Positions 11,525-52,801 of a stretch of 57,447 bases of DNA are shown one piece after another (the stretch's first letter is position 1; every line of letters begins with the position of its first letter). This DNA comes from Kordia sp. (GTDB lineage: Bacteria > Bacteroidota > Bacteroidia > Flavobacteriales > Flavobacteriaceae): positions 1-57,447 of the forward strand of contig NZ_JAKVBC010000035.1 of NCBI RefSeq assembly GCF_022447245.1, written 5' to 3'. A model generated the notes under the pieces. The model made no database searches. It saw only the letters and a program-made list of their open reading frames with translations, and was not told the origin of the DNA. The position numbers and the translations under genes were made by a program.

Positions 11525-11725
11525 ATGAGAAAAAGAAATTTAACAAATAGATTGGAGTTAAAAAAGAAAGTAATTGCTGCTTTAGATGCTACAAAACTCA
11601 CAGGAGGCTTAGTGAATGTGAATACAGAGGAACCAGATCCATTAACACATAACAGTTTGTGCCCAATTTAAACATGTTCGTGTACAGATCCAAAATTTGA
11701 TAATTGTAAGCCTGTAAGTGTTTAA
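11525..11725 (+). pseudogene. lanthipeptide-like precursor 1, interrupted by a stop codon
   Basis: The leader is MRKRNLTNRLELKKKVIAAL then DATKLTGG, like Bacteroidota class I lanthipeptide leaders that end in Gly-Gly. The frame closes after LCPI at a TAA (11669-11671), giving 48 residues with one Cys. The same frame continues after the stop as TCSCTDPKFDNCKPVSV and closes at 11725. The downstream part is Cys/Thr/Ser-rich as expected for a core, so a CAA to TAA change is likely. A 48-residue peptide could still be made. First of three tandem precursors. Confidence 0.6.
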
Positions 11726-11758
11726 CGTATTTCATTGTTAAATGCTAAATCTATCAAT

Positions 11759-12021
11759 ATCAAAAAAAAGAATTTACATGTAAAGTTGCGTTTTAAAAAG
11801 CATAAGATTACTTCATTTAACTCCAAAACAGTCATAGAGGAATAGCCTATATTCCACCAATCACAGTAGAGAAGGATGTTTGCCAACCTTCGGATATATG
11901 TTCTGATAAAGAAACCTGTCCTTATCATTGTATCATTATGCGAGAAGATGCTTGCTATACATATCCGATTATAAGTTGTACTCCTGATGGTTGTGGATCG
12001 ATGGTTAATTGTCAAATCTAA
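11759..12021 (+). pseudogene. lanthipeptide-like precursor 2, start lost and frameshifted
   Basis: A leader-like stretch KKKNLHVKLRFKKHKITSFN then SKTVI begins with ATC (11759-11761) where ATG would be expected. The Gly-Gly site reads GAGGA rather than GGAGGA, and the core then continues one frame away as GIAYIPPITVEKDVCQPSDI, followed by a Cys-rich part that ends SCTPDGCGSMVNCQI. The end resembles precursor 3 (SCTPRGCGNTLFNC), so they are paralogs. With no start codon and a 1-bp deletion at the cleavage motif it is probably not expressed. Confidence 0.65.
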
Positions 12022-12032
12022 AAAAGGACACC

Positions 12033-12284
12033 ATGAAGAAAAAGAATTTTGATACAAAGTTGTATTTGGGAAAGCGTAATGTTGCTTCTTTTTATAGGAA
12101 AACATTAAAAGGAGGAACTGCAAACGCAGCAGATTGTGCGCCACCTTCCCATCAATGTGGAACAAATAATTGCGGATCAAATAATTGCGATACTAATAGT
12201 TGTCCAACCGTAGCAACTTGTTTTGCAGATGCCGCTTTGAGTTGTACGCCGAGAGGTTGTGGAAACACACTTTTTAATTGTTAA
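12033..12284 (+). CDS. class I lanthipeptide-like precursor 3, intact
   Basis: 83 residues from ATG 12033, with an AAAAAGGAC stretch just upstream. Leader: MKKKNFDTKLYLGKRNVASF then YRKTLKGG. Core of about 55 residues with nine Cys and many Thr/Ser/Asn, including the near-repeats QCGTNNCGSNNC and DTNSC, and ending SCTPRGCGNTLFNC. It fits the Bacteroidota class I lanthipeptide precursor pattern. A longer reading from 12009 exists but adds a non-leader prefix. No lanthionine synthase is in this window, so modification is not shown. Followed by a terminator. Confidence 0.7.
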   Translation: MKKKNFDTKLYLGKRNVASFYRKTLKGGTANAADCAPPSHQCGTNNCGSNNCDTNSCPTVATCFADAALSCTPRGCGNTLFNC

Positions 12285-12334
12285 AACTGAATTATATCCT
12301 ACTATAATTAAATATTTTGAGTTAGTTAAGGAAG

Positions 12335-12373
12335 AGATAGAAGTATGTATTAGTTCATGCTTCTATCTTTTTT
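12335..12373 (+). terminator. terminator after precursor 3
   Basis: AGATAGAAG (12335-12343) pairs with CTTCTATCT (12360-12368), extended by TATG/CATG, with a T-run to 12373. Confidence 0.75.
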
Positions 12374-12411
12374 GCTTTATTATTGATACATTCAAATTTG
12401 CAAAACACACT

Positions 12412-12915
12412 TTATTTAAGCTTCCATTCTACAAGTACTAATGATAATATAACATCATTCCAAAATTCAAAACTAGCAAGCCTTGGTCTTACAGGAATAA
12501 TACTTGTTGGAATCCATTCAGATCCTCCGTTTATGTTTATTAAAGCCTCATAGGTTAATTGCTTCTCAAAAGGATTTTTTACCGTCAACATCATATTAGT
12601 ATGTTTTTTGCCTTCAACGTTTTGGATAAATTCTAGTGTAATTGTTTTTTCAGGGTTAACATTCTCTGTAACTACTTTCATAGTGTGAATAGAATCTCCC
12701 TTAATTTCTGTTTCAATAAAAAGCTTTTCAGAAGGATATATTTGAAGGATTTTATCTCTGACAAAGTATGGAGACTTTGGTACTTCTTGTTGATAGAAAT
12801 TTATAGTATCTATGGCTACTTTTAAAGTGAAAGCTTCTCTATCTGGCTTTTCGTTTTGAGCTTTTGCGAATACGCTGAAAATTAGAAATAGACTGAAAAT
12901 TATTTTTTGCTGCAT
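12412..12915 (-). CDS. secreted protein of unknown function
   Basis: 167 residues, signal peptide MQQKIIFSLFLIFSVFAKAQ. The mature part begins NEKPDREAFTLKVAIDTIN and is rich in beta-strand patterns (TITLEFIQNVEGKKHTNMML, YEALININGGSEWIPTSIIP). No family recognised. It stands alone on the minus strand, convergent with precursor 3. Confidence 0.65.
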   Translation of the reverse strand: MQQKIIFSLFLIFSVFAKAQNEKPDREAFTLKVAIDTINFYQQEVPKSPYFVRDKILQIYPSEKLFIETEIKGDSIHTMKVVTENVNPEKTITLEFIQNVEGKKHTNMMLTVKNPFEKQLTYEALININGGSEWIPTSIIPVRPRLASFEFWNDVILSLVLVEWKLK

Positions 12916-13066
12916 GGTTTGGTTATTAATGTTTAGTAATAAACTTCTTAAAGTTATGGTTATTGTTGTAGATAGAAAAATTACTCTTAATCAAAATAGC
13001 TTATAAAAATGTAGGTTTTTTTATGCTCTTTGTCATGCCATATATAGCATTCACTGTAAGTATGGT

Positions 13067-13452
13067 TTAGGAATTTAATTTGGAATACATAGTTTGTATG
13101 TTGTTAGAAGGCTTTTTAAACCAACTAGGAGTACCGAACATTTCCTTAATAGATTTTATACCATAATAAAATTGGTTGTTTTCTTTTCTGATTGATTTTA
13201 ATAGGGAATCTTTAGCAATTATTTTATTTAAAAAGTGTTGATCACTTTCACACATCATTCATAAGCTTTCGGTATAAAATATTGCTTTTTTTTTTGCATT
13301 TTTAATTGAATCTGGAGGAATGAATCCAAAAAAATATTCAAAATTAGAAACGAATTGTTTCTTGTCTTCAGGATTATAAGAGTAAAGCAACTAGAGAGTG
13401 TTGCTGTTAAACAAATTACAAAGATATTTAATAGTATTTTAAATCTTTTCAT
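13067..13452 (-). pseudogene. decayed lipoprotein gene
   Basis: The start MKRFKILLNIFVICLTATLS ending in SC is a clear lipoprotein signal. Directly after it the sensible reading moves to another frame (LYSYNPEDKKQFVSNFEYFF, then GFIPPDSIKNAKKKAIFYTE), reaches a TGA after ESL, and continues in the same frame as MMCESDQHFLNKIIAKDSLL to the TAA at 13067. So it has one frameshift and one in-frame stop. The protein would be about 128 residues. Family unknown. The region between 13456 and 13737 has no gene, only the hairpin listed next. Confidence 0.6.
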
Positions 13453-13672
13453 CACATTAATTTATTAAAAAATAATATAAACGATAAATAGAATTAATGA
13501 AGAAACTTTTTTAACAAAAAAAAAAGAACGGATACGATTTTAGCACTAATACTGAACAATTTCTTTTACAAATTTTAACTTTTTCCATTAAAATAAAGCC
13601 TTTCCTACGACGTTTTAGTATTGAATCTTGTAGTTCAGGAGATATGAATATTTCCTGTCTTTGTCAGTAAAC

Positions 13673-13706
13673 ATCAAGAGCAGCTTTTTTGCGAGCTGCT
13701 CTTGAT
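13673..13706. terminator. strong hairpin downstream of clpB
   Basis: ATCAAGAGCAGC (13673-13684) and GCTGCTCTTGAT (13695-13706) form a perfect 12-bp stem with a 10-base loop. No T-run follows on either strand, so it may be an mRNA 3' end stabiliser rather than a classic terminator. Confidence 0.6.
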
Positions 13707-13737
13707 TACTTTAATTGAATTTTATGTAAACTTCTTA

Positions 13738-16338
13738 TTAGTTTTCAATCAAATTAGTCTGATTTCTAAATACCAACTCATCGTTGAATTCATCTAGTAA
13801 AATGATACTCTCAGCAGACACTTTTCCACTTAGAATTTCTTTAGATAATTCATTCAACACTTTTCTTTGAATGACACGTTTTACAGGTCTAGCTCCAAAT
13901 TGTGGGTCAAATCCTTGTTGTGCTAAGTATTGAATGGCTTCTTCAGTAGCATCTAAAGTAATTTGCTGTTTAGAAAGTCTTTTTGTCACGCTTTTTAATT
14001 GCAAACGCACAATTTCTTTGATGTCGCTTTGCGTTAATGGTGTAAACATGACCATATCATCAATACGATTAAGAAACTCTGGTCGTATTGTTTTTTTTAA
14101 TAAGCCTAAGACTTCTACCTTGGCAGCTTCTGTAGCACTAAACATGTCTTGCATTGCCTTGAATTTTTCTTCGATGATATGACTTCCCATGTTAGATGTC
14201 ATAATAATGATTGCATTCTTAAAATCGGCAACTCTTCCTTTGTTATCTGTCAAACGACCTTCATCTAATACTTGTAATAGAATATTGAAGGTATCTGGAT
14301 GTGCTTTTTCTATTTCGTCAAGTAAAACAACCGAATATGGTCTGCGTCGGACAGCTTCCGTCAGTTGTCCACCTTCATCATATCCCACATATCCTGGAGG
14401 CGCACCAACTAGTCTGCTTACAGAATGTGATTCTTGATATTCGCTCATGTCAATTCGTGTCATGGCGTTTTCATCATCAAACAAATAAGAGGCAAGAGCT
14501 TTTGCCAATTCCGTTTTTCCAACACCTGTCATTCCTAAGAAAAGGAACGAACCAATTGGACGATTGACATCTTGCAATCCTGCACGACTTCTACGAACTG
14601 CATCAGAAACTGCAATAATGGCTTCTTCTTGCCCAACTACACGTTTGTGTAATTCTTTTTCGAGTTGCAATAGTTTTTCGCGTTCACTTTGCAACATTTT
14701 AGTTACTGGAATTCCTGTCCATTTGGCTACAACTTCAGCAATATCTTCGTTGGTTACTTCTTCTTTAATGAGTGCGTTTTCTTCTTGTGTTTCTAATTCT
14801 TTTTGCAACACATCTAATTGTTGTTGCGCTTCTTTAATTTTCCCATAACGCAATTCTGCTACTTTTCCATAGTTTCCTTCGCGTTCGGCACGTTCGGCTT
14901 CTGCACGATAATTTTCTATGGCTTCTTTCGTTGCTTGTACTTGATCTACTACATCTTTTTCAGATTGCCATTTGGAGAAAATTTCATCGCGTTCCTCTTT
15001 CAAATTTGCCAATTCTGCATTTAATGATTTCAATTTTGCCTCATCGTTTTCACGTTTGATCGCTTCAATCTCAATTTCTAACTGCATGATACGTCTGTCT
15101 AACACGTCCAATTCTTCAGGTTTTGAATTGATTTCCATACGTAATTTAGAAGCAGCTTCATCGATCAAGTCAATGGCTTTATCTGGTAAAAATCTATTGG
15201 TAATATAACGTTGCGACAACTCAACGGCTGCTATAATTGCTTCGTCTTTGATACGTACTTTATGATGTGTTTCGTATTTTTCTTTGATTCCTCTCAGAAT
15301 AGAAATTGCACTTTCCGTATCTGGTTCGCTTACGGTAATTTTTTGGAAACGACGCTCTAAGGCTTTGTCTTGTTCAAAGTATTTTTGATATTCATCCAAT
15401 GTAGTTGCTCCAATGGCTCTTAGTTCTCCACGAGCTAAGGCAGGTTTTAAGATGTTTGCTGCATCCATAGCACCTTGTCCGCCGCCAGCACCAACTAGTG
15501 TGTGTATTTCATCAATAAATAAGACAATATCACCATCTGCCGAAGTTACTTCTTTAATCACTGCTTTTAAGCGTTCTTCAAATTCACCTTTAAATTTGGC
15601 TCCAGCGATTAATGCTCCCATGTCAAGCGAATAAATTTGTTTGTCTTTTAAGTTTTCAGGGACGTCGCCTTGTATGATTCTATGTGCCATTCCTTCCGCA
15701 ATAGCTGTTTTACCAACACCAGGTTCACCAACCAAGATCGGATTGTTTTTCGTTCTACGCGAAAGAATTTGTAAAACTCTGCGGATTTCTTCATCTCTAC
15801 CAATCACTGGATCGAGTTTTCCGTCGTTTGCCAATTGGTTCAAGTTATTGGCGTATTTATTCAGCGAGTTATAGGTGTCTTCCGCCGTAGCAGAAGTTAC
15901 ACGTTCACCTTTGCGAAGCTCTTGAATGGCAGTTTTTAATGCTTTTTCAGTAACACCTTGATCTTTTAAAATCTGTGCTATTTTACTATTCGATTTAAAA
16001 AGAGCTAATACCAAATGCGAAGTTGATACAAATTCGTCATTCATTTCTTTGGCAACAATACTAGCATCTGTCAAGGTTTTTCCAGTAGCAGGAGATAGCA
16101 TAATATTTCCGCCACTGACTTTTGAAAAACTATTGAGTGTACTTTCTAATATTTGAGAAAGTAGTGTAACATTTACATTGAGTTTCTTTAATAAAAAAGG
16201 CAATACATTATCATCAACATCCATGATGGCTTTGAAAAGATGTTCATTTTCAATTTGTTGATGACCGTATGTTTGCGTAATAAGCTGTGCTTGTTGTACA
16301 GCTTCTTGTGATTTTAAAGTATAATTGTTAAAATTCAT
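13738..16338 (-). CDS. clpB: ATP-dependent chaperone ClpB
   Basis: 866 residues from ATG 16338; the open frame begins 12 codons earlier but [20 protein letters not shown] is the normal ClpB start. Order: Clp-N repeats; first AAA domain with [18 protein letters not shown] (Walker A) and [16 protein letters not shown] (Walker B); a coiled-coil M-domain ([40 protein letters not shown]); second AAA domain with [20 protein letters not shown] and [19 protein letters not shown]-terminal [16 protein letters not shown]. It disaggregates proteins with DnaK. It is intact in a damaged neighbourhood. Confidence 0.98.
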
Positions 16339-16497
16339 AGCGTTCGGTTCTGTAATTTTATAGTAATTTTGCAATTGTTATTCCAATTGAGAATACAAGA
16401 CAAAATGGCGGTTAATGCTAGTATTTGTAAGACATTTTGACATTTTTGCAAGTTTTAATAAAAGCATACGACCGATACTTTAAATTTACAGATACTT

Positions 16498-16893
16498 ATG
16501 GGAATATTCAATAAATTATTTGGTAGTTCTAAACCTTCAGAAGCTCAAGAACCTTCAAAACTACAATGGGCACGATTGACAGATATGTCACAGTTAGACA
16601 CTATTGTTGAGGAATCGAAAACAATGCCAGTTGCTATTTTTAAGCATAGTACACGTTGTGGAATTAGTAGAATGGTGATTAATCAGTTTCAAAGTACTTA
16701 TGATTTAGAAGAAAATCAAATGAAAGTATATTATTTGGATTTATTGAGTTTCCGTCCAATTTCACAAGAGATTGCAGCGCGTTTCCAAGTATGGCATGAG
16801 AGTCCACAATTAATTGTAATAAAAAATGGAATTACGGTAGCACATGCTTCTCACAGTCAAATTAACGCAATTCCACTAGAGCAATTTGTGTGA
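16498..16893 (+). CDS. ytxJ: bacillithiol system redox-active protein YtxJ
   Basis: 131 residues. Pattern: LQWARLTDMSQLDTIVEESK then PVAIFKHSTRCGISRMVINQ, with a single redox Cys in the T-R-C-G-I-S motif, and HESPQLIVIKNGITVAHASH with the cis-Pro of the thioredoxin fold. It matches YtxJ, proposed to act in bacillithiol-linked thiol exchange. A longer N-terminus with MGIFNKLFGSS is typical of flavobacterial members. Divergent from clpB. Confidence 0.88.
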   Translation: MGIFNKLFGSSKPSEAQEPSKLQWARLTDMSQLDTIVEESKTMPVAIFKHSTRCGISRMVINQFQSTYDLEENQMKVYYLDLLSFRPISQEIAARFQVWHESPQLIVIKNGITVAHASHSQINAIPLEQFV

Positions 16894-17017
16894 TTTTTCT
16901 TTTTTAACTTTTTAAAATTAAGAATTAAGAGTTTTTAAGACAGATTTTAGGGGCTGTTTTGTGCATTTAATTTACATCATTCAATCAATCAAAATTCGTT
17001 CTTAAAAATTACTGCCG

Positions 17018-17914
17018 ATGGAAACTACCATTAATATAAGGATAATGCTTTTTTTTGGCATTTGCCATACAAGCCTTTGCACTCGGAATTTTATTTTTCT
17101 TAAAGCGTAAAGGTGATCGCGTTGCCAATAGTATATTTGGCGTTTTTTCGTTACTATTTTCTTATAATCAGTTTTTTAACTGTCCATTTTGGTCTGCTTA
17201 CGACGGTTATTATATAGGGACATGTCGTTTACCAATTTTATTACTTGGGTTTGTTATGGTCCTTTGATGTATATATATTTAAAACGAGTACTTAATAAAA
17301 GCCCGTTTACTAGGCGTGATTTATGGCATGTAATTCCTTTAGTTTGGATCTTTTTTGTCTTTGGAAGCTATTATTTTTACTGATAGAATTGAAACATGAA
17401 ATTGATAGTGCAAATTCACATGCAGATTATGTGAATTGGTGGCTAATTCCGAGACGATATTTGGTAGATGTTTTCACACTTTTAATGCTGGTATATGCAG
17501 CCAAGTATTTTTTCTGGAACTTTAAAGATTCCTTTTATAAAGTATCAAAATAACGGTTTGTCTTCTTCGATTGCTGCAGAAATGAAAGAAAAGTTGATTT
17601 CTTTAATGGAATCTGATAAATTATTTTTTGACAGTTTGCTTATGCTGGATGTATTATCGTCACATTTGAATTTGTCACGACATCATACGTCACGATTGAT
17701 TAACGAACATTTTCAGGTAAACTTCTTTGGGTTTGTCAATAATTGTCGGATTGATGAAGCAATTCGACTTTTGCAGGATAAACAAAACGATTTGAATATC
17801 AACGAAATCATCTATGCCACCGGATTTAACAATCGGACTTTGTTTTATAACGCATTCCGAAAGAAAACGAGCATTTCACCTAAATCGTATTGGAGTCAGA
17901 ATAGGCTAGCCTAG
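17018..17914 (+). pseudogene. membrane-anchored AraC-type regulator, several frameshifts
   Basis: Five fragments in different frames run in the right order. First METTINIRIMLF, then AFAIQAFALGILFFLKRK with membrane segments, then YGPLMYIYLKRVLNKS and DLWHVIPLVWIFFVFGSYYF, then IELKHEIDSANSHADYVNWW and the last membrane segment, and finally the DNA-binding part: DVLSSHLNLSRHHTSRLINE, HFQVNFFGFVNNCRIDEAIR and GFNNRTLFYNAFRKKTSISP, a standard AraC HTH pair. Four shifts are needed, some in homopolymers (the T-run near 17049-17056). The family is the 6-7 TM AraC regulators common in Flavobacteriia. Too many lesions for one sequencing error. Confidence 0.85.
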
Positions 17915-17944
17915 ATTGTTTTTTTACACAGTATTTAACTATAA

Positions 17945-17986
17945 AAACACAGATACAAACTATTGATAGAGTTTGTATCTGTGTTT
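17945..17986. terminator. 17-bp perfect hairpin between convergent pseudogenes
   Basis: AAACACAGATACAAACT (17945-17961) and its exact inverse (17970-17986) around an 8-base loop. It can terminate both the AraC-type gene and the minus-strand secreted gene. Confidence 0.75.
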
Positions 17987-17991
17987 CTACT

Positions 17992-19027: not shown

Positions 19028-19065
19028 GGCAAAAGTGAGTAAAACATACTCACTTTTGCCTTTTT
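19028..19065. terminator. terminator for the 19087-20280 gene
   Basis: GGCAAAAGTGAGTA (19028-19041) pairs with TACTCACTTTTGCC (19047-19060), with T-runs on both sides. Confidence 0.85.
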
Positions 19066-20561: not shown

Positions 20562-20762
20562 ATGAAAAAACAAGAGTTTAAGTCAAATTTTACTTTAAAT
20601 AAGTCTGTGATTTCAAATTTCGAAACTTCGCAAGTAAAAGGAAGAACTATAGGAATTGAATCTGTTGACAGATTGAATTGTGAAACAGAAGATTGTGTGA
20701 CGCAGGATTGTATTACCATTTTACAAACCAATTATTATCAATGTCCAAAAACAACATGTTAA
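20562..20762 (+). CDS. lanthipeptide-like precursor, intact
   Basis: 66 residues from ATG 20562 (the open frame extends upstream to 20451, but MKKQEFKSNFTLNKSVISNF is the normal leader). The leader ends TSQVKGRTIG, with one Gly where Gly-Gly is usual. The core has five Cys and several Thr: NCETEDCVTQDC in repeated C-x-T/Q units, and it ends QCPKTTC. Leader and core fit the Bacteroidota class I lanthipeptide pattern. First of a second precursor cluster. Confidence 0.65.
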   Translation: MKKQEFKSNFTLNKSVISNFETSQVKGRTIGIESVDRLNCETEDCVTQDCITILQTNYYQCPKTTC

Positions 20763-20803: not shown

Positions 20804-20997
20804 ATCAAGAAAAAAAGATAGAAAAAACGTTAAAGATTAATAAATCTAATATTACAAGTTTATCAGACAAAAAAATGGATATGTTAAAAGGAGCATCTGC
20901 AGTACCACAATTGTGTCCAACATTCATCCCACACCTTTATTTAATTACCTATCGTTCTTGCACCTATTCGGAAACGTATCGTACGTGTCCAGCATAA
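20804..20997 (+). pseudogene. lanthipeptide-like precursor without a start codon
   Basis: The leader EKKIEKTLKINKSNITSLSD then KKMDMLKGAS and the core VPQLCPTFIPHLYLITYRSC are in one open frame to the TAA at 20997, ending TYRTCPA. No ATG, GTG or TTG opens it. The expected start region reads ATCAAGAAAAAAAG (20804 on), which would need ATC to be ATG and one more A. The end resembles the next peptide (TIRTCPA), so they are paralogs. Possibly silent. Confidence 0.55.
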
Positions 20998-21033: not shown

Positions 21034-21285
21034 ATGAAAAAACAAATCAGAAAATCGTCATTGCAAATAAATAAATCAACTGTAGCTCATTTAATACAAG
21101 GTCAACTTCGAGTAGGAGGAACATATACTTGTCACGGGCATTCATGTTGTCCAGAACCAACACAGGATCCGACATATGCTAATACTTGTGCAAATACCTG
21201 TGCATACACTTGCGGATTTGTATGTGGTGAAGAAACTATAGATCCAAGAAGATGTCTTGAGACTATTAGAACTTGTCCAGCATAA
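21034..21285 (+). CDS. lanthipeptide-like precursor with TC repeats, intact
   Basis: 83 residues from ATG 21034. Leader MKKQIRKSSLQINKSTVAHL then IQGQLRVGG, with the typical Gly-Gly. The core has ten Cys with short repeats: YTCHGHSCC, then ANTCANTCAYTCGFVC, and ends CLETIRTCPA. Thr-Cys pairs are natural substrates for lanthionine or methyllanthionine formation, but thiol-rich metal binding cannot be excluded from sequence. Confidence 0.7.
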   Translation: MKKQIRKSSLQINKSTVAHLIQGQLRVGGTYTCHGHSCCPEPTQDPTYANTCANTCAYTCGFVCGEETIDPRRCLETIRTCPA

Positions 21286-22505: not shown

Positions 22506-22993
22506 CCATTACTTGCGATTATATTATTGGTTATTGTATTGCTTGTTGGTGTTGTTACATGTTTTAGTTTTATGCAACCAGATATTTTTTCAGGAAAAAA
22601 ATCATTCCGTATTTTAAATACCGCAAAAATGGAATGTTAGAATCTTTTACACTTGAAATGAAACAACAGCTAGAAAGTTTAATGGAAACTGAAAAGGTAT
22701 ATCTAGATCATACACTTGCACTTAATACACTTGCAGATTTGCTGTACCTTTCCAAGCATCACACTTCGCAAATTATCAATAAATATTTTCAATCAAATTT
22801 CTTCGAATTTATTAATAATTATAGTAAGAAAGAAGCTATTGCATTAATTTCTGATACTGCGAATAACATGAATATTAATGAAATTATTGATGCAACAGCA
22901 TTTAACAATTATTCTTAATTTTATAAAGCTTTCAAAAAGAAATCTGGCATGACTCCAACTTCATACGTAAAAAAGATTTCCGAAGATTTATAG
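22506..22993 (+). pseudogene. second AraC-type regulator, truncated and interrupted
   Basis: A remnant of the same family as 17018-17914. A last membrane segment (LLAIILLVIVLLVGVVTC) leads to FMQPDIFSGKK, then a frame shift to IIPYFKYRKNGM, then LESFTLEMKQQLESLMETEK, LADLLYLSKHHTSQIINKYF and the second HTH, where AFNNYS is followed by TAA and then FYKAFKKKSGMTPTSYVKKI in the same frame to 22993. The 5' membrane part is missing. About half the size of its intact relatives. Confidence 0.75.
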
Positions 22994-23151
22994 TATTTTT
23001 TTAAACGCTTTGTCAATCCTTGTCGGCTCATGTGTCATTTCTTAGACTTTTAACTTCCTTTGATCGGCATTTGTTAATGGACAAAAACATTCGCAATAGC
23101 GGAACCCGAAAAGCTGATCGAGTAGGGAATTTACTTTAATCTTTTATTATT

Positions 23152-23330
23152 ATGAAAAAAAAAGTATCTCAAACAATTTAGCATTTAATAAATCAGTAAT
23201 AGCTGAATTAAGCGATAAGACACAGTAAAAAATTGTAGGAGGATCAACAGTTTTAACTTCAGTTTTAGTCGCAGCTTGTGGAACTATCAATCCATTAAAT
23301 TGTAAAATGAGCGCATATTGTGCTCACTAG
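23152..23330 (+). pseudogene. lanthipeptide-like precursor with frameshift and stop
   Basis: ATG at 23152 opens only 9 codons. One more A in the A-run would put it in frame with SISNNLAFNKSVIAELSDKT, then Q, TAA, KIVGG, and the core STVLTSVLVAACGTINPLNC, ending KMSAYCAH at 23330. The leader's Gly-Gly is intact. At least two lesions. Confidence 0.6.
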
Positions 23331-23355
23331 TTTTAATTATTTTAATTACTATGTA

Positions 23356-23474: not shown

Positions 23475-23629
23475 ATGAAAACTCAAAAATCATTCAAATC
23501 ATTAGGACTTAAAAAATCACAAGTAGCAACCTTAAATGCAAAAGCTGTAAATGAGGAAGAACAATTCCACATTCATCTAGAGGTTCATTAAATCCCTTAA
23601 ACTATACAAATAGTGCATTTTGTTATTAA
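23475..23629 (+). pseudogene. lanthipeptide-like precursor, frameshifted at the GG motif
   Basis: ATG 23475 opens MKTQKSFKSLGLKKSQVATL then NAKAVN, a standard leader. The next bases are GAGGA where GGAGGA would give Gly-Gly. In the actual frame it runs EEEQFHIHLEVH to a TAA at 23591. One frame away the core reads GRTIPHSSRGSLNPLNYTNS then AFCY to a TAA at 23629, which resembles the core of the 23152 locus (TINPLNCKMSAYC). A single missing G explains it. Confidence 0.6.
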
Positions 23630-37165: not shown

Positions 37166-37379
37166 TTAGTTGCATAAAAATACAGTATAATCAAACCAGT
37201 CACAATACTTACCGTAAGAATACTCTTTTTGAAGTTCACAAGGAATACCAGTTTCACAAAAGCCTGTTCCTCCTTCACATGGAGATTCACAGGTTTCTCC
37301 ACCAACTATTTTTCTAGCATCAAAATTTGAAATTGCTTGTTTGTTTAATTTTAATCCATTTAATTTTTTTGTGTTTCAC
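37166..37379 (-). pseudogene. lanthipeptide-like precursor, frameshifted near the start
   Basis: From the expected GTG (37379) the frame runs VKHKKIKWIKIKQTSNFKF and ends. One frame over it reads TKKLNGLKLNKQAISNFDAR then KIVGG, with a clean Gly-Gly leader, followed by a core of about 40 residues with eight Cys: ETCESPCEGGTGFCETGIPC, ELQKEYSYGKYCDWF and the end VFLCN at 37168. One extra A after the start would restore the frame. Confidence 0.6.
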
Positions 37380-39623: not shown

Positions 39624-39653
39624 TTGCTTAAATGTAAAAACATTTTATCTTTG
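39624..39653 (+). promoter_or_regulatory. promoter of the SRP RNA
   Basis: TTG (39624-39626), 19 bases, TATCTTTG (39646-39653), an exact Bacteroidota promoter 5 bases before the RNA's 5' stem. Confidence 0.8.
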
Positions 39654-39657
39654 CAGC

Positions 39658-39751
39658 GGCAAGTCCTACACAACCAGCTCCTGTTGAATCCTCCAGGGCG
39701 GGAACGCAGCAAAGGTAAACGGTCGTAGCGGTGTGATGTAGGTAGCTTGCC
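39658..39751 (+). ncRNA. ffs: signal recognition particle 4.5S RNA
   Basis: The ends GGCAAG and CTTGCC close the hairpin, with a T-run after. The conserved SRP loop region is seen as TTGAATCCTCCAGGGCGGGA (39684-39703) followed by ACGCAGCAAAGGTAAAC: the GGGAACGCAGCA part is the Ffh-binding symmetric/asymmetric loop pair. Length about 94 nt, as for small bacterial SRP RNA. It brings Ffh and ribosomes to FtsY for membrane insertion of proteins. Confidence 0.93.
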
Positions 39752-39926
39752 TTTTTTTATGCGCTAAAGTCAAAGATCATAAATTAATTCCATAGACTAT
39801 TCATAAGAAGTTCAAATTTGAGTAATGAGACGAGCTTCTGTATATTACCTCTCTATTATCAAGTCAAGTCTTTATTTCTCCTTTTTTTTAAGCATATTTG
39901 TAAAAAATTAACCAAAACCAAAACGA

Positions 39927-45474: not shown

Positions 45475-45647
45475 GATAGGAGAAAACAGTGTAATTTTTT
45501 ATTTAAATGTTAATAACTCGCGTACTATTCTCTCAAACAATTTCTTTTTCACATCTGATAATGTTGTAATTTTACCCCAAATTGCGTTCAAACTGAAAAC
45601 GCTACAAAACAGAAAACACAACTTTCAAATATTAAAATAGATAACAA

Positions 45648-46301: not shown

Positions 46302-46327
46302 AGAAAACTTTCAACACTAATATATAG

Positions 46328-46361
46328 AAGCGTTATGGACATTTCCAAGACGCTTTTTTTT
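46328..46361 (+). terminator. terminator after fsa
   Basis: AAGCGT (46328-46333) pairs with ACGCTT (46350-46355), with an inner GGA/TCC pair and an eight-base T-run. Confidence 0.8.
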
Positions 46362-46491
46362 ATGATCTTTATTTTTTGACAATTTATGATTAAGTTTAGT
46401 CATAATCGTACATTTCTTCTCCATAGATTTTTCTTATAATTGCTCTATAATACAACTAACTTACTCTTAGCCAAACCCTAAACCTTTTACC

Positions 46492-48696
46492 ATGAATAAG
46501 TTCTGTACAATATATCTTTCTGCTTGCCTGTTTGTTTTTATAACTGCTTGCTCAGAAAAAACGAATATTCAAACAAATAGAATAATGAATCCAGTCAAGA
46601 AGCCTAAATTTGAAACACCTATATCTACAGAAGTTGCACAAAAGAAAGCAGATTCTATTGTTGTATTAATGTCACTTGATGAAAAACTTGATTTGATAAA
46701 AGGACATAATAGCTTTTTTATTAAAGGTTATGAAAAATATGGAATTCCAAAAGTTTATTTATCAGATGCTTCACAAGGAGTACACATTCGTGAATCTTTT
46801 CTAGGGTTAGATTTATCAGATTACGCATTGCCAAAATCTGTGGCATTCCCAAATACTTTATGTTTAACAGCGACTTGGAACCCTAATTTAGCTCACGATT
46901 ATGCAAAGAGTATTGGAGAGGAATGCAGAGCAGGAGGAATTGGAGTACTACTAGGTCCAGGAATGAATATGTATAGAAATTCACAAAACGGACGAAATTT
47001 TGAGTACATGGGAGAAGATCCATATTTAGCAGCACGTGTAGTTGAACAATATGTAGTTGGTGTTCAAAATACTGGTGTTATTGCAACATTAAAACATTTT
47101 ATTGCAAATAATACAGATTATAGGCGTAGAGCTTCAAACTCAGTAGTAGATGAGAGAGCATTACACGAAATTTATATGCCAGCATTTAAATCGGGCGTAG
47201 ATGCTGGAGCGCAGGCTGTGATGACTTCTTACAACTTAATTAATGGAGAATGGGCTGGACAAAGTGATTTTGTAATCAATCATTTATTACGTGACGAACT
47301 CGGTTTTTCGAATCTAGTAATGTCAGATTGGTGGAGTATTAATGATTGTAAAGCTTTGATAAATTCTGGTCAGGATTTAGAAATGCCAGGAGGAGAATCC
47401 ATGACAAACTTAAAATCCTATGTTGAAAATGGAGAAGTAGCTATTGAGAAAATAGACTTGATGTGTATTAGAATCATTAAAACTCTTGCGCAGATGAATT
47501 TTTTGGATGCGCCAATTAAAGACAATTCTTATTTTGAAAAATTTGATCAACATGAACAAGTTGCATTACAAACGGCTCGTGAGGGAATTGTATTATTACG
47601 AAATGAAAATAATGTATTGCCAATTACTAAAGATAGCGACAAAAAGATACTATTGACAGGAATTTATATAGATGAAATCATTTATGGAGGTGGATCTGGT
47701 GAAGTAAAAGGATATAATAAAGTAACGATGTTAGATGCTTTACAAAAAGTATATCCAAATCTTACTTACAAATCTGAAGCAACAGATGAAGATTTAAAAG
47801 GTGCAGATGTAGTTATTGTAAGTGTTGGGACGTGGGATTGGGAAGGTTGTGACCGAAGATTTGCACTGACAACTGAACAAGAAGCATTGGTTCAAAAAGC
47901 TTCAACATTAAATAACAATACAATAGTTATCGTGAATTCTGGAGGAGGAATTCGAATGAACGATTGGAATCATGTCAAAGCAATTGTATACAATTGGTAT
48001 CCTGGGCAAATAGGGAATGTAGCACTTGCAGAAGTATTGACAGGAGTTACTAATCCAAGTGGAAAATTACCAATGACCATAGAAAAAGAATTCAGTGATT
48101 CTCCAGCATACGGATATGTATCAGAAGAAACCTCTTTTTTAAGTGATCATAAAAAATACTTAGATACAAGTATTCCTGAATCAGAATTGAATCGTTGGAG
48201 TTTTGATACAAGTATTGATGAAGCAAAAGATCTTTTATACGATGTAGAATATAAAGAAGGTGTATTGGTAGGTTATCGTTGGTACGACACTAAAAATATA
48301 ACGCCGTTGTTTCCATTTGGTCATGGTTTATCCTTTACAACATTCAAATTAGACGATGTACAACTTTCTTCTAACGAAATTGCAAAAAGCGAAACTCTAA
48401 AAGTTACGGTTGAAGTAGAAAATACTGGAAAAGTAAATGGAGCAACAACAATACAGCTTTATGTAGGTGAAGAAAAAGCAACGATTATACGTCCTGTAAA
48501 AGAATTGAAAGCCTTTAAAAAAGTATGGTTAAAAGCAGGAGAGAAGAAGTCGATAGATTTATATCTAGAACAAGACGCTTTTTCATATTGGAGTCCACAC
48601 ACAAAGAAATGGGAAACAAACGCTGGGAAATTTAATATATACATTGGGCAATCATCTGCAGCTATTGAGGCAGAAACTAAAGTAACAGTGCGTTAG
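46492..48696 (+). CDS. glycoside hydrolase family 3 lipoprotein (beta-glucosidase type)
   Basis: 734 residues. Lipoprotein signal (LSACLFVFITACSEK). GH3 N-terminal barrel: IPKVYLSDASQGVHI, LGPGMNMYRNSQNGRNFEYM and EDPYLAARVVEQYVVGVQNT, then TLKHFIANNTDYRRRASNSV; the nucleophile is Asp279 in LVMSDWWSIN. The C-terminal domain has REGIVLLRNENNVLPI, IIYGGGSGEVKG and YNWYPGQIGNVALAEVL; fibronectin-like end at 640-730 (FPFGHGLSFTTFKL). It would cut beta-glucosides in the periplasm or at the surface. Terminator follows. Confidence 0.93.
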   Translation: MNKFCTIYLSACLFVFITACSEKTNIQTNRIMNPVKKPKFETPISTEVAQKKADSIVVLMSLDEKLDLIKGHNSFFIKGYEKYGIPKVYLSDASQGVHIRESFLGLDLSDYALPKSVAFPNTLCLTATWNPNLAHDYAKSIGEECRAGGIGVLLGPGMNMYRNSQNGRNFEYMGEDPYLAARVVEQYVVGVQNTGVIATLKHFIANNTDYRRRASNSVVDERALHEIYMPAFKSGVDAGAQAVMTSYNLINGEWAGQSDFVINHLLRDELGFSNLVMSDWWSINDCKALINSGQDLEMPGGESMTNLKSYVENGEVAIEKIDLMCIRIIKTLAQMNFLDAPIKDNSYFEKFDQHEQVALQTAREGIVLLRNENNVLPITKDSDKKILLTGIYIDEIIYGGGSGEVKGYNKVTMLDALQKVYPNLTYKSEATDEDLKGADVVIVSVGTWDWEGCDRRFALTTEQEALVQKASTLNNNTIVIVNSGGGIRMNDWNHVKAIVYNWYPGQIGNVALAEVLTGVTNPSGKLPMTIEKEFSDSPAYGYVSEETSFLSDHKKYLDTSIPESELNRWSFDTSIDEAKDLLYDVEYKEGVLVGYRWYDTKNITPLFPFGHGLSFTTFKLDDVQLSSNEIAKSETLKVTVEVENTGKVNGATTIQLYVGEEKATIIRPVKELKAFKKVWLKAGEKKSIDLYLEQDAFSYWSPHTKKWETNAGKFNIYIGQSSAAIEAETKVTVR

Positions 48697-48725
48697 TAAT
48701 TACAGAAAAATAAATACATAGATTT

Positions 48726-48756
48726 AGGAATAGTGTAGCAGCTATTCCTTTTTTTA
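48726..48756 (+). terminator. terminator after GH3
   Basis: AGGAATAG (48726-48733) pairs with CTATTCCT (48742-48749), then T-run. Confidence 0.8.
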
Positions 48757-48887
48757 TAGATAATGCACAAGTAAGAATCCTTAAAATCCAAAGATTGAGG
48801 TTCTCTAACCTAAATTGGACATGCAAATGATACTACCAAATAAAAATAAAAAATGTGTGTATCAAAGTATAATGGAGAAATGTACAA

Positions 48888-50306
48888 TTACTTTAATTGA
48901 TCTTCTAAATTAGTGTCGTATATATTAGCAAAAGCATCTACAATATTACCACTGCGATCTGTGATAATAAGTTTATTGATGCTAATTAATGCAAAATCAC
49001 GAAGTACGTTCTCTCTTTTGCCTACACGGTATTGCCCACTTTCTGGAAATTCAAATTCTTTTACTTCTTTCTTCCAACGTTTATGATTTTCGTCTAAGCT
49101 GATACCTACAATATTCAAATTAGGATACTGTTTGTCAAGTGCTTTGATTTTTTTAGTAATCAAATACTTATGGCGTTTTTGAGACGAAGTCCAAAAGTAA
49201 AACAACGTTTTTCCACGTTTGGAATTCAAACGATTTACAGGAATGCGTGCATGTTTGTCATCATACACAAAGATTTGATTTGAAAAATTATTCCCAGATT
49301 GTAAACTCTTAATTCCATTGTGAAGACTGGTAATTTCTTCTTTTGATTTACTATCGGTTGCTACAGTTTGATACATTTTAAAGAACTCATTATTCTTTAT
49401 AATATCTTCTGTATTATTCCTAAAATACGAATACGCAGTATAACGAAGCAGTTCGTTTCGCAAATACGGATACGTTACTAAACTGTCAATAAGTTTCAAT
49501 TTATTTTTATTATACGTCAAAGAAGTATTCAAAGGTTTATTACCTTTCCAAGACTTCTGCAAGCATTCGCTGTACGAATAATTGTTGATATATTGCATAA
49601 TATATCGTGCATACGGACGATAATAACTCATCGTAGAATCGTTCATATCTACCTTTGACTTATACTTGTAAAAATTATCTGCAATTTTGAGAGTAGAATC
49701 TTCTTTCTTACGTCTGTAAAAGCTATTTTGATAGGTTTCACGATATCTAAAGTTTCGATATTGAATTGCTTTATCCGTAAATGTTTTAAAAGCTTTGGAA
49801 ATATTTGGATTCGCTGCCAAAAATTTACGCTGTTTTTCTAGTTTAATACCTTGAAGCGAATCTATTTTATTGAGAAATTGTTCACTATCTAATCTTGTAT
49901 ATTGATAAATTGGACGTTCATGACTGGCATTCAACAAATACAATTCAACATAAAAATTGTTTTTTTCAGCACCTTTTCCAGTAAAAACTAGCGATTCATC
50001 AAATTTAAAAGTATTCAAACGCAACAATAAACTGTCACCTTTTTCTAAATAGATATATTGATATTCTGGATAGTGATAAAATTTATACAATCCGTCTTTA
50101 TGGTTTTTCAATTTTGCCATAAAACGGTTGTTATCATCTAGCTTTAAGGAATCTACGAATTCGCCTTGGTGATAAAGAACCACATATTCATCACCTGGGT
50201 TTATAATTTCTCCACCAAAATAAACGACATCTTCTGCGCTTGTTTTCTTCGAGTCACTACAACCAAAGCAAATTAATATGAGTAATAATTGGGTAAAATA
50301 TTTCAT
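48888..50306 (-). CDS. thioredoxin-fold lipoprotein without CxxC
   Basis: 472 residues from ATG 50306; the open frame extends 11 codons upstream but MKYFTQLLLILICFGCSDSK is the lipoprotein signal. An Ig-like domain (DVVYFGGEIINPGDEYVVLY) is followed by a helical region, then a TlpA-like domain near the end: GKTLFYFWTSSQKRHKYLIT, NLNIVGISLDENHKRWKKEV and LRDFALISINKLIITDRSGN. The redox pair is replaced by SSQK. The architecture matches Bacteroidota TlpA-like proteins with DUF4369-type N-termini. Without cysteines it cannot be a classical disulfide reductase. Confidence 0.82.
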   Translation of the reverse strand: MKYFTQLLLILICFGCSDSKKTSAEDVVYFGGEIINPGDEYVVLYHQGEFVDSLKLDDNNRFMAKLKNHKDGLYKFYHYPEYQYIYLEKGDSLLLRLNTFKFDESLVFTGKGAEKNNFYVELYLLNASHERPIYQYTRLDSEQFLNKIDSLQGIKLEKQRKFLAANPNISKAFKTFTDKAIQYRNFRYRETYQNSFYRRKKEDSTLKIADNFYKYKSKVDMNDSTMSYYRPYARYIMQYINNYSYSECLQKSWKGNKPLNTSLTYNKNKLKLIDSLVTYPYLRNELLRYTAYSYFRNNTEDIIKNNEFFKMYQTVATDSKSKEEITSLHNGIKSLQSGNNFSNQIFVYDDKHARIPVNRLNSKRGKTLFYFWTSSQKRHKYLITKKIKALDKQYPNLNIVGISLDENHKRWKKEVKEFEFPESGQYRVGKRENVLRDFALISINKLIITDRSGNIVDAFANIYDTNLEDQLK

Positions 50307-50498
50307 AGCAATTTGGTCTCCACATTCCGATTTTAACAAAACTAACCATCACAAATGCAATACGGTGTTAATAGGCTGTTAAAAATATCTGTTAAAACGT
50401 TAAGACTAACCTAAGTAAAATTCGTTGTAAATCTTAGTAATATTCAATCTAATTCTTACTTTTGCGCAATATATAAAAAAGTTTAAAAAACGAAAAGA

Positions 50499-52130
50499 AT
50501 GTTATCTGTATCTAATCTATCAGTGCAATTTGGTAAACGTATCTTATTTGATGAAGTAAATACAACGTTTACAACAGGAAATTGCTATGGTGTTATCGGA
50601 GCTAATGGCGCTGGTAAATCCACTTTTTTAAAAATATTATCTGGAAAGATGGAACCTACTTCTGGGCACGTACATTTAGAGCCTGGCAAACGTATGTCTG
50701 TTTTAGAACAAGATCACTTTGCGTATGACGATCTTCCTGTATTAGAAACTGTAATTATGGGGAACAAACCTTTGTTTGCTATAAAAAAGGAGATGGATGA
50801 AATTTATGCAAAAGTAGATTTTTCAGATAAAGATGGAGAACGCGTTGGAGAGTTGCAAATTGAATTTGAAGAAATGAATGGATGGAATGCCGACTCTGAT
50901 GCAGCAGCTTTGTTATCAAACTTAGGAATTTCAGAAGCCAATCATTATTCGTTGATGAACGAATTGGATGGTAAACAAAAAGTACGTGTGTTATTGGCAC
51001 AAGCACTTTTTGGAAATCCTGATGTGTTGATTATGGATGAGCCTACGAACGACTTAGACTTTGAAACAATTGCTTGGTTAGAAAATTTCTTAGCAAACTA
51101 TGACAATTGTGTTATTGTGGTTTCGCATGATAGACACTTTTTAGATGCAGTTTGTACACATATTTCAGATATTGATTTCGCAAAAATAAATCACTACAGT
51201 GGTAATTATACATTTTGGTACGAAAGTAGCCAGCTAGCGGCAAGACAACGTGCGCAACAAAACAAAAAGGCAGAAGAGAAAGCAAAAGAATTGCAAGAAT
51301 TCATTCAACGATTTAGTGCGAATGTGGCAAAATCCAAGCAGGCGACTTCTCGTAAAAAAATGTTAGAGCGATTGAAAGTAGAAGATATCAAGCCTTCTAG
51401 CCGTCGTTATCCTGCAATTATATTTGATAGAGATCGTGAAGCTGGAGATCAAATTTTAAATGTAGAAGGCTTAAAAGCTAGTGTTGATGGCGAAATATTA
51501 TTTCAAAACATTGATATCAACTTGGCAAAAGGAGATAAAGTTGCGGTTATATCTAAAAACTCACGTGCTACTACTGCTTTCTATCAAGCTATTAACGGTA
51601 AAATTGAAGCTGACGCAGGAACGTACAAATGGGGAATTACCACATCGCAATCGTATTTACCAGTTGATAACTCAGAATATTTTGACAACGACTTAACATT
51701 GGTTGATTGGTTACGTCAATGGGCAACAACCGAAGAAGAAAGAGAAGAAGTATACGTTCGTGGATTCTTAGGAAAAATGATTTTCAGTGGAGAAGAAGCG
51801 TTAAAAACAGCACGTGTACTTTCTGGAGGAGAAAAAGTTCGTTGTATGTTATCGCGCATGATGATGATGAGAGCAAACGTTTTAATGCTTGATGAACCAA
51901 CAAACCACTTGGACTTAGAAAGTATTACAGCATTCAACAACTCTTTAAAAAACTTCAAAGGAACAGTGTTATTTACAACGCACGATCATGAGTTTGCACA
52001 AACTGTTGCCAACAGAATCATTGAATTGACGCCAACAGGAGTTATCGACAGATATTTAACGTTTGATGATTATATGAACGATAAAAAAATCAAAGAGCAA
52101 CGTGAAAAAATGTACAGCGTAGGTGTATAA
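50499..52130 (+). CDS. ABC-F family ATPase (YbiT/Ettl type)
   Basis: 543 residues, two ATPase domains without membrane segments. Domain 1: YGVIGANGAGKSTFLKILSG, LDGKQKVRVLLAQALFGNPD and VLIMDEPTNDLDFETIAWL. Linker: KAEEKAKELQEFIQRFSANV, KQATSRKKMLERLKVE. Domain 2: KVAVISKNSRATTAFYQAIN, where the P-loop lysine is absent, then LSGGEKVRCMLSRMM and LMLDEPTNHLDLES. ABC-F proteins bind ribosomes at the E site. This group is of the YbiT kind, not an antibiotic-resistance type as far as seen. TACTTTTG at 50457-50464 is a candidate -7. Confidence 0.93.
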   Translation: MLSVSNLSVQFGKRILFDEVNTTFTTGNCYGVIGANGAGKSTFLKILSGKMEPTSGHVHLEPGKRMSVLEQDHFAYDDLPVLETVIMGNKPLFAIKKEMDEIYAKVDFSDKDGERVGELQIEFEEMNGWNADSDAAALLSNLGISEANHYSLMNELDGKQKVRVLLAQALFGNPDVLIMDEPTNDLDFETIAWLENFLANYDNCVIVVSHDRHFLDAVCTHISDIDFAKINHYSGNYTFWYESSQLAARQRAQQNKKAEEKAKELQEFIQRFSANVAKSKQATSRKKMLERLKVEDIKPSSRRYPAIIFDRDREAGDQILNVEGLKASVDGEILFQNIDINLAKGDKVAVISKNSRATTAFYQAINGKIEADAGTYKWGITTSQSYLPVDNSEYFDNDLTLVDWLRQWATTEEEREEVYVRGFLGKMIFSGEEALKTARVLSGGEKVRCMLSRMMMMRANVLMLDEPTNHLDLESITAFNNSLKNFKGTVLFTTHDHEFAQTVANRIIELTPTGVIDRYLTFDDYMNDKKIKEQREKMYSVGV

Positions 52131-52150
52131 TTCACAAAAACTATATCATT

Positions 52151-52187
52151 AAAAAGTCCCTTGAAATTGTTTCAAGGGACTTTTTTT
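52151..52187 (+). terminator. terminator after ABC-F gene
   Basis: AAAGTCCCTTGAAA and TTTCAAGGGACTTT pair perfectly around TTG, then T-run. Confidence 0.9.
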
Positions 52188-52204
52188 GTTTCTAACTTCT
52201 TAGT

Positions 52205-52399
52205 TTACAGGAATAAATAGAAACTATTGTTTGTATAGTCACAAGTGTGTGTTTCTGGTGGAGGCGGACATTGTAACGTACAAAATACTGAACATAAATT
52301 GGATGTTCTACTAGTTTCACCTTTTAATTCCTCAGCTCCTAAATTTGAAACTGCCTTTTTGGAAAGCTGTAATGATTTTACATTTCTTTTTGTTGTTAT
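52205..52399 (-). pseudogene. lanthipeptide-like precursor with ATA in place of ATG
   Basis: The natural start would be at 52399, but the codon is ATA. From there the frame runs TTKRNVKSLQLSKKAVSNLG, AEELKG, then a core ETSRTSNLCSVFCTLQCPPP, PETHTCDYTNNSFYLFL to the TAA at 52205. The leader is regular (KSLQLSKKAVSNL), ending in KG. The core has four Cys and several Ser/Thr. No ATG, GTG or TTG opens it upstream in frame. One G-to-A change could have inactivated it, or ATA could be used weakly. Confidence 0.55.
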
Positions 52400-52648
52400 T
52401 AAAAGATTTATGGTTTTTAACTTTCTTTAGATTAAGTAGTTAAAAGATAAAAAAAAGAAATATAAGTTACATTTTATAGATTTCGATATGTATGTAGTAT
52501 TGGTGTGTCAAATAAATATTGACAAAAGCACACATATATCTATAGAAAATTCACTGTAACAAGTAAGGATAGTGTGTATGAAGTTTGTTAAAGTGATGGA
52601 TTGACTTCAACTTTAAAATATAAAAATATATTTTTTCAGATAGTGATT

Positions 52649-52801
52649 TTAAGGAAGTCTACAAATTCCACTATAACACTTATAAGGATAGTCACAAGGC
52701 TTATCATCTGTGCAGAAGCGCGGCAAACCTCCAACAATGTTTCGTTGTCCTTTTTTATTAATAAAACTAAATCCGTCAAGATTTGAAATTTTATCTAACA
52801 T
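52649..52801 (-). CDS. 50-residue Gly-Gly leader peptide with four-Cys core
   Basis: From ATG 52801: MLDKISNLDGFSFINKKGQR, NIVGG, then a 25-residue core LPRFCTDDKPCDYPYKCYSG ICRLP. The Gly-Gly site is at residues 24-25. The core has Cys spacing C-x5-C-x5-C-x4-C, a disulfide-type pattern as in small knottin-like toxins, so it is more like a class II bacteriocin/defensin-like peptide than a lanthipeptide, though Thr/Ser are also present. It is intact, too short for most gene finders, and no transporter is close. Confidence 0.6.
   Translation of the reverse strand: MLDKISNLDGFSFINKKGQRNIVGGLPRFCTDDKPCDYPYKCYSGICRLP

What the first reader, a model, noticed from the sequence alone, without database searches (positions are those of the whole stretch)
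11525..52801. A dispersed set of at least ten Gly-Gly leader peptides with no synthetase in the window
Loci at 11525, 11759, 12033, 20562, 20804, 21034, 23152, 23475, 37166, 52205 and 52649 share a K-rich leader with an L-x-K-x-x-I/V-x-x-L core, usually ending in GG or KG, followed by a Cys/Thr/Ser-rich core. No LanB, LanC, LanM, radical SAM, PCAT exporter or C39 peptidase gene is seen in 57 kb. Modification enzymes in trans, shared by many scattered precursors, would be an unusual arrangement.
Basis: partly seen in the sequence, partly recalled or inferred. Interest (0 to 1): 0.8.

Follow-up and report, generated by a model that had tools for sequence, protein, structure and literature searches.

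The report
One enzyme set, hundred scattered lanthipeptides
A marine Kordia bacterium carries roughly a hundred small peptide genes scattered over its chromosome that share one recognition tag, and it has a single matching set of modifying enzymes far away, so one factory probably makes a large, conserved repertoire of ring-containing peptides.

Summary
Ten of the 11 loci carry one leader family (Bacteroidota class I lanthipeptide, NF038153-like); 52649 is another GG peptide. Only three of the ten are intact here (12033, 20562, 21034). The host is a Kordia. Its genome holds 114 such loci at 78 sites (88 with an open frame by a simple length rule) but one LanB, in a LanC/LanB/elimination-domain/C39-exporter cluster on another contig. 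All 11 Kordia genomes examined have one LanB and 45-98 leader matches each. Window precursors have orthologues with the same cores at the same places in relatives; cores are under purifying selection, and five of the seven broken copies have intact orthologues. Dispersed leaders match precursors within 10 kb of LanB in 19 of 20 other LanB loci. So: a class I counterpart of prochlorosins with a conserved repertoire, modified in trans (inferred, not shown chemically). High RiPP counts in Kordia were already in print; the one-LanB layout I did not find. New lead: membrane TPR-AraC regulators sit mostly 73-172 nt upstream of Cys-poor family members, suggesting receptor-peptide pairs.

The parts
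11525..11725 (+). L1a-leader precursor, broken (in-frame stop in the core at 11669); orthologues at the TetR neighbour in 10 of 10 other Kordia genomes
11759..12021 (+). L1a-leader precursor relic (no start, stop after leader, core in another frame); intact orthologues in 4 of 10 relatives
12033..12284 (+). intact L1a precursor, 83 aa, ...LKGG + Cys-rich core; core resembles LanB-adjacent Kordia precursors
20562..20762 (+). intact precursor, 66 aa (KG where relatives have GG); orthologues in 9 of 10 relatives, one of them truncated
20804..20997 (+). precursor relic without a start in frame; orthologues in 7 of 10 relatives
21034..21285 (+). intact precursor, 83 aa; orthologues in 3 of 10 relatives
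22634..22918 (+). remnant of an AraC-type (HTH_18) regulator upstream of precursor 23152; several relatives have a longer AraC-type gene there
   Evidence: 22 bits, below Pfam cut-off 33.6
23096..23128 (+). DUF805b RNA element directly upstream of precursor 23152
23152..23331 (+). frameshifted precursor with a stop; intact orthologues in 8 of 10 relatives
23475..23629 (+). precursor frameshifted after the leader; one intact orthologue seen (L167)
37166..37372 (-). precursor without a start codon in frame; leader, GG and Cys-rich core readable
52205..52399 (-). precursor without a start codon in frame; leader and Cys-containing core readable
52649..52801 (-). GG-leader Cys-containing peptide of a different type, not of the L1a family

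Best explanation
The loci are class I lanthipeptide precursor genes of the Bacteroidota type (leader with an LxLxKx5L-like motif and usually GG, then a Ser/Thr/Cys-rich core). In Kordia about a hundred of them are scattered over the chromosome and served in trans by one enzyme set: LanB adds and a separate elimination domain removes glutamate to dehydrate Ser/Thr, LanC closes the thioether rings, and a C39 ABC exporter cuts after GG and exports. Sites keep their own cores by purifying selection, with gain and decay of members between species. Shown here: leader family, one LanB per genome, orthology and selection at window loci. Inferred: the chemistry, in-trans recognition, export, and the biological role (antagonism or signalling at sea).
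For: Window leaders far above chance. 117 NF038153 matches at E<=10 in the genome, 114 kept, of which 85 open with ATG (45 aa or more) and 3 with a start just upstream; 78 sites, 35 contigs. One LanB in a complete cluster with LanC, elimination domain and C39 exporter. 11 of 11 Kordia genomes: one LanB each, 45-98 matches at E<=0.1. In a single-contig Kordia genome 92 of 97 matches were kept and lie at 64 sites all round the chromosome, one within 10 kb of LanB. A leader HMM made only from dispersed precursors finds precursors in 19 of 20 LanB loci from Kordia, Lacinutrix, Leptobacterium, Psychroserpens, Aquimarina and others. The core of one dispersed precursor (C1:107621) matches LanB-adjacent Aquimarina cores, 81% over 16 aa, E 1e-9. 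78 cores: 11.4% Cys, 19.9% Ser+Thr. Syntenic orthologues with conserved cores; dN/dS of cores 0.07-0.24 in six sets. Outside Kordia, 12 of 15 family genomes with a leader match also have a LanB. Of 30 neighbour proteins at 20 sites, 26 have a Pfam family and none is a lanthipeptide enzyme or C39 exporter.
Against: No product is known. 97 of 117 matches score below the curated NF038153 cut-off. 11 of 78 cores have 0-2 Cys, so not every member can form several rings. A class V-like LanC cluster exists too, and five other C39-domain matches, one with a stop. Co-occurrence is not perfect: among 29 non-Kordia relatives one has a LanB and no leader match, and three have a single weak match and no LanB. 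dS is near saturation and the orthologue sets were picked by eye. Only 3 of 10 window copies are intact.
Confidence: 0.8

Rival explanations
1. The dispersed peptides are exported by C39 transporters but never get lanthionines; their Cys form disulfides, and LanB serves only the three precursors beside it.
For: Another GG peptide type without this leader exists in the window (52649) and in the genome; six C39-domain matches in the genome.
Against: The dispersed leaders are the same family as leaders near LanB in 19 of 20 loci; Ser/Thr are abundant together with Cys; a dispersed core is homologous to LanB-adjacent Aquimarina cores; sets of more than 14 matches were seen only in Kordia, which has LanB in 11 of 11 genomes.
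Confidence: 0.1
2. The set is a graveyard: spreading but non-functional duplicates of a few lanthipeptide genes.
For: Seven of ten window copies are broken, and 26 of 114 genome-wide by the rule, which counts the truncated 11525 as open.
Against: 88 of 114 keep an open frame; the same cores persist at the same sites in up to 10 of 10 other Kordia genomes, with dN/dS well under 1 in six sets.
Confidence: 0.05
3. The dispersed precursors are modified by another enzyme, such as the class V-like LanC/kinase/HopA1 cluster on C14.
For: That cluster exists; PMC11118758 mentions a LanC with a nucleotidyltransferase around Kordia precursors (passages).
Against: No NF038153 match lies in the C14:6000-24000 stretch (nearest on that contig 50934) and a rough leader-pattern scan found none there either; it has its own long repetitive Cys-rich frame; LanB loci carry the L1a leader in 19 of 20 cases.
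Confidence: 0.04

Closest known systems
Class I lanthipeptide precursors of Bacteroidetes with LxLxKx5L leader and GG (Walker et al. 2020, PMC7268733, passages read)
   Same: Leader motif, GG site, C39 protease often in the cluster, LanB/LanC chemistry expected
   Different: Described there inside gene clusters; here nearly all are away from the enzymes
Prochlorosins/synechococsins (ProcM, SyncM; PMC10783134, passages read)
   Same: One enzyme, many scattered precursors with a common leader and different cores; 29 and 79 precursors for one enzyme, 143 putative ones in a strain with two ProcM-like enzymes
   Different: Class II LanM with a CCG motif and Nif11-family precursors in picocyanobacteria; here class I LanB plus LanC with the usual Cys / Cys-His pattern, in Bacteroidota. 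Cores here are conserved at fixed sites; whether prochlorosin cores are was not checked
RiPP-rich Kordia in ocean mining (PMC11118758, section 7 and passages read)
   Same: Kordia named as an example of RiPP-rich Flavobacteriaceae; up to 176 precursors in a Bacteroidota genome
   Different: In what I read, no statement on one LanB serving dispersed precursors, orthologous cores, or paired regulators
RRNPP receptor-peptide pairs of Gram-positives (recalled, nothing read)
   Same: TPR receptor gene directly followed by a small exported-peptide gene
   Different: Here a likely membrane protein with TPR part and an AraC-type DNA-binding end, and a GG-leader peptide of the lanthipeptide family

Membership tests
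Class I lanthipeptide precursor (NF038153, lant_leader_L1a) | leader match over the curated cut-off (22 bits) | tested here: inconclusive
   20 of 117 genome matches pass; in the window only the broken 23152 locus does (29.3 bits); 5 of 6 window peptides scanned match at 12.7-19.3 bits
Class I lanthipeptide precursor (NF038153, lant_leader_L1a) | same leader family as precursors near LanB | tested here: met
   dispersed-only HMM finds them in 19 of 20 LanB loci
Class I lanthipeptide precursor (NF038153, lant_leader_L1a) | Ser/Thr/Cys-rich core after GG | tested here: met
   78 cores: 12.6% Thr, 7.3% Ser, 11.4% Cys, mean 5.2 Cys; 7 of 85 open precursors lack GG in the searched span
Class I lanthipeptide precursor (NF038153, lant_leader_L1a) | LanB and LanC in the genome | tested here: met
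Class I lanthipeptide precursor (NF038153, lant_leader_L1a) | encoded next to LanB | tested here: not met
   window loci are on another contig; met only for the few cluster-linked precursors
Class I lanthipeptide precursor (NF038153, lant_leader_L1a) | lanthionine rings in the product | not testable with these tools
   needs mass spectrometry
Prochlorosin system | many scattered precursors, one synthetase | tested here: met
Prochlorosin system | class II LanM with CCG motif | tested here: not met
   enzyme is LanB (PF04738) plus LanC with WCYG and CHG aligned to the solved LanC-like chain 8byk; CCG described in PMC10783134 (passages)
Prochlorosin system | Nif11-type leader | tested here: not met
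   no Pfam family for the three intact window precursors; leader is L1a-like. That Nif11 is a Pfam family is recalled
RRNPP quorum sensing (features recalled) | TPR receptor gene with peptide gene directly downstream | tested here: met
   22 of 27 regulators in LanB loci, same strand, 73-417 nt, 20 of them 73-172 nt
RRNPP quorum sensing (features recalled) | receptor binds the peptide | not testable with these tools
   structure prediction could not be started, machine busy
RRNPP quorum sensing (features recalled) | cytoplasmic receptor | tested here: inconclusive
   by eye a signal-peptide-like N-terminus and a hydrophobic stretch between TPR and HTH_18, which speaks against; no topology program was run

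The most novel reading that the evidence does not exclude
Kordia runs a one-synthetase, hundred-product class I lanthipeptide system whose cores are kept species after species, and part of the family is not ammunition but signal: Cys-poor members sit directly downstream of dedicated membrane regulators (TPR sensor outside, AraC-type DNA-binding end inside), forming receptor-peptide pairs, a Gram-negative analogue of TPR-based peptide quorum sensing built on the lanthipeptide export route, and perhaps controlling the scattered arsenal.
Probability: 0.3. Interest if true: 0.82.

Novelty: new variant of a known kind. Interest (0 to 1): 0.66.

Why it matters
One-to-many lanthipeptide synthesis is, as far as I read and recall, known mainly from class II ProcM-type enzymes. 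A class I counterpart in a culturable genus, with about a hundred natural substrates, would give a large natural test set for leader-guided class I modification, and the conserved cores imply that the individual products matter. Genome mining that looks only beside enzymes would miss almost all of these genes. If the TPR-AraC pairs are receptors, each such peptide comes with its own reporter.

Tried and rejected
A common promoter motif upstream of 84 precursors: an EM search gave AT-rich motifs of low information that scored better than shuffles, but the shuffles got fewer starts and iterations, so I draw nothing from it (k-mer counts). DUF805b RNA as a lanthipeptide-specific switch: rejected, since of 20 inspected hits in this genome 13 lie 17-24 nt before other genes. 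Class V-like cluster as the enzyme for the set: disfavoured. Phase variation at the A-run after ATG: 6 of 117 have the ATG out of frame before an A-run, but decay or sequencing error explains it as well, and nothing here tests it. Limits of counts: one search scored 150 of 193 first-look candidates, at most 148 per genome, at most 25 per genome, so those counts are lower bounds; 11759 and 23475 are not among the 117. Rows dropped: 3 of 117 in this genome, judged by eye not to be precursors; 5 partial matches of 97 in G009. The leader alignment holds 77 of 85 open leaders: the 7 without GG and one more were left out. Orthologue sets were picked by eye, leaving out divergent or truncated copies (three for the 12033 type, one each for the 20562 and 20804 types); one of seven sets got no ratio because no GG column was found. 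30 of 47 listed neighbour frames were scanned. The regulator HMM was built from five regulators chosen because they lie beside precursors, and the regulators of related genomes are not independent. The partial LanC on C5 was only listed as ORFs.
Full report
OBSERVATION. The named loci were translated in the window and read in their DNA. Ten of 11 have a K-rich leader of one family; 52649 does not belong. A leader HMM trained on 73 leaders from elsewhere in the same genome gives 11 window hits of at least 12 bits, the ten loci and a doubtful one at 56064 (-), against one hit (12.8 bits) in 30 shuffled windows taken together; 11759 and 20804 score no higher than that one. Three of the ten are intact (12033, 20562, 21034); the other seven lack a start in frame, carry a stop, or change frame.

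GENOME. The window is all of contig C29 of a 5.24 Mb, 82-contig genome. Its LanB is 88-97% identical (best segment) to those of eight Kordia records in the named collection, so the host is a Kordia. NF038153 finds 117 places at E<=10, 20 over the cut-off; five of 14 control genomes ring at that loose limit, none over the cut-off. After dropping three that are not precursors, 114 remain: 85 open with ATG (45 aa or more; the truncated 11525 counts among them), 3 with a start codon just upstream, 26 broken, at 78 sites on 35 contigs, 52 of them single. Cores after GG (78 of 85 open ones) hold 11.4% Cys, 12.6% Thr and 7.3% Ser; only 36 pairs of cores resemble each other at E<=1e-3. The consensus of 77 leaders with GG is MKKxxxKxLxLxKxxISxL...GG.

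ENZYMES. LanB occurs once, on C1, in a cluster with sigma-factor-like and TPR genes, LanC, LanB, a separate Lant_dehydr_C protein, a TPR-AraC regulator, three leader-type precursors, HlyD and an ABC exporter with a C39 domain. LanB resembles the solved chains 9g04, 4wd9 (NisB) and 5ehk; LanC keeps the WCYG and CHG motifs. A second LanC on C14 lies with a LxmK-like kinase (62 bits, cut-off 315) and a HopA1 protein, so it is class V-like, and has its own repetitive Cys-rich frame. A third, partial LanC with a stop is on C5. Five more C39-domain matches exist, one with a stop.

GENUS. Of 40 genomes searched, the 11 of the same genus, this one included, have one LanB each and 45-98 leader matches at E<=0.1. 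The other 29 have 0-2 matches (5 of 29 have any) and 3 of 29 have a LanB; one of these three has no leader match, and three genomes have a single weak match without LanB. In 299 family genomes, 17 have a match at E<=0.01; the highest outside the genus are 14, of which 12 on one contig, and 10, spread over five contigs, so dispersal is not confined to Kordia but the scale is largest there (counts are lower bounds). Of the 15 with matches outside the genus, 12 have LanB. In the single-contig genome G009, whose length equals that of the K. algicida OT-1 record, 92 of 97 matches were kept: 64 sites, all tenths of the chromosome, one match within 10 kb of LanB; my own leader HMM finds three near the LanB of the OT-1 record (L108).

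SYNTENY AND SELECTION. Two single-copy neighbours led to the same places in ten other Kordia genomes. Precursors with the same cores sit there: the 11525 type in 10 of 10, the 20562 type in 9 (one truncated), the 23152 type in 8, the 20804 type in 7, the 11759 type in 4, the 21034 type in 3 and the 23475 type in 1. So five broken window copies (11525, 11759, 20804, 23152, 23475) have intact orthologues; 37166 and 52205 were not traced. dN/dS, leader/core, by simple counting: 0.34/0.23 (11525 type), 0.08/0.19 (11759), 0.21/0.24 (12033), 0.09/0.07 (20804), 0.25/0.12 (21034) and 0.24/0.10 (23152), in six of seven sets, with dS near saturation; the core is the more constrained part in four of six. 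These are not a random library: at these sites the product is kept.

LINK TO LANB. The dispersed-only leader HMM finds precursors within 10 kb of LanB in 19 of 20 loci (none in L126, an 8 kb contig of another phylum). The core of dispersed C1:107621 matches Aquimarina precursors near LanB (81% over 16 aa, E 1.3e-9), and the 12033 core matches LanB-linked Kordia cores (49% over 35 aa, E 6e-10, though Cys- and Asn-rich and searched without a complexity filter). Of 30 proteins next to precursors at 20 sites (30 of 47 listed frames), 26 have a Pfam family; none is a lanthipeptide enzyme or C39 exporter; four are TPR plus HTH_18 regulators.

REGULATORS. The LanB cluster and several dispersed sites have a TPR plus HTH_18 protein just upstream of a precursor. 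In the LanB loci, which were fetched without regard to this, 22 of 27 such regulators have a precursor within 450 nt downstream on the same strand, 20 of them at 73-172 nt; random placement gives 2.2 on average and at most 9 in 2000 trials. The paired cores hold 1.9 Cys on average against 4.3 in the others, p 7e-5. The regulators of related genomes are not independent, and the regulator HMM came from five paired examples. In this genome 12 of 13 regulators scoring 60 bits or more, the LanB cluster's among them, have a precursor within 600 nt downstream, but all those loci except the C1 and C14 clusters were fetched because of a precursor, and some of these cores are Cys-rich. The regulators begin with a signal-peptide-like stretch and have a hydrophobic stretch before the HTH end, by eye. 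Solved TPR proteins of many kinds match, Rap phosphatases among them, which is not specific. I propose receptor-peptide pairs; binding is untested.

LITERATURE. Walker et al. (PMC7268733, passages) describe the LxLxKx5L-GG leaders and C39 proteases of Bacteroidetes class I clusters. PMC11118758 (section 7 and passages) names Kordia as an example of RiPP-rich Flavobacteriaceae and gives up to 176 precursors in a Bacteroidota genome, so high counts are known. PMC10734526 and PMC7477175 (passages) mention Kordia clusters; PMC10783134 (passages) gives 29, 79 and 143 precursors for the cyanobacterial system, the last with two enzymes; PMC12328550 and PMC9993889 were read in passages. In the listings and the passages read I saw no report of one LanB serving about a hundred dispersed precursors; the library holds open-licence papers only and no supplements were read.

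VERDICT. A real, genus-wide class I analogue of the prochlorosin arrangement with a conserved repertoire; modification in trans is the best inference (0.8) but unproven.

Noticed in passing
window 23096-23128; L158-L169: DUF805b RNA (RF02914): 11 of 11 gathering hits in the syntenic loci end about 19-27 nt before an L1a precursor start. In this genome 35 hits at E<=1, 15 over the cut-off (150 of 3293 candidates scored; all 14 control genomes also ring at E<=1, none over the cut-off). Of 20 inspected, 13 lie 17-24 nt before an ATG of another gene, two of them GG-type peptides, so it looks like a general 5' element or promoter.
   Followed up: partly
L041:14386-16080, L021, L052, L119-L127 and others: TPR-HTH_18 regulators directly upstream of L1a peptides, 22 of 27 in LanB loci.
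   Followed up: partly
L043:8284-13131: Class V-like lanthipeptide cluster (LanC, LxmK-like kinase, HopA1) with a frame of 282 aa made of repeated Cys-rich units such as GPTGTQGCT and a separate leader-like gene.
   Followed up: no
window 17495-17914: AraC-type HTH_18 frame of 139 aa, shorter than the 370-aa AraC-type genes seen before precursors in relatives.
   Followed up: no
G000 C29:23157, C13:25316, C11:7130, C78:73736, C45:800, C23:16474: Six precursors have the ATG out of frame right before an A-run; decay, assembly error or slippage could explain it.
   Followed up: no
G312 (unnamed family member): A second genus with a smaller dispersed set (10 matches on five contigs) and one LanB.
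   Followed up: no
window 39650-39756: Bacteroidales small SRP RNA (RF04183), ordinary.
   Followed up: no
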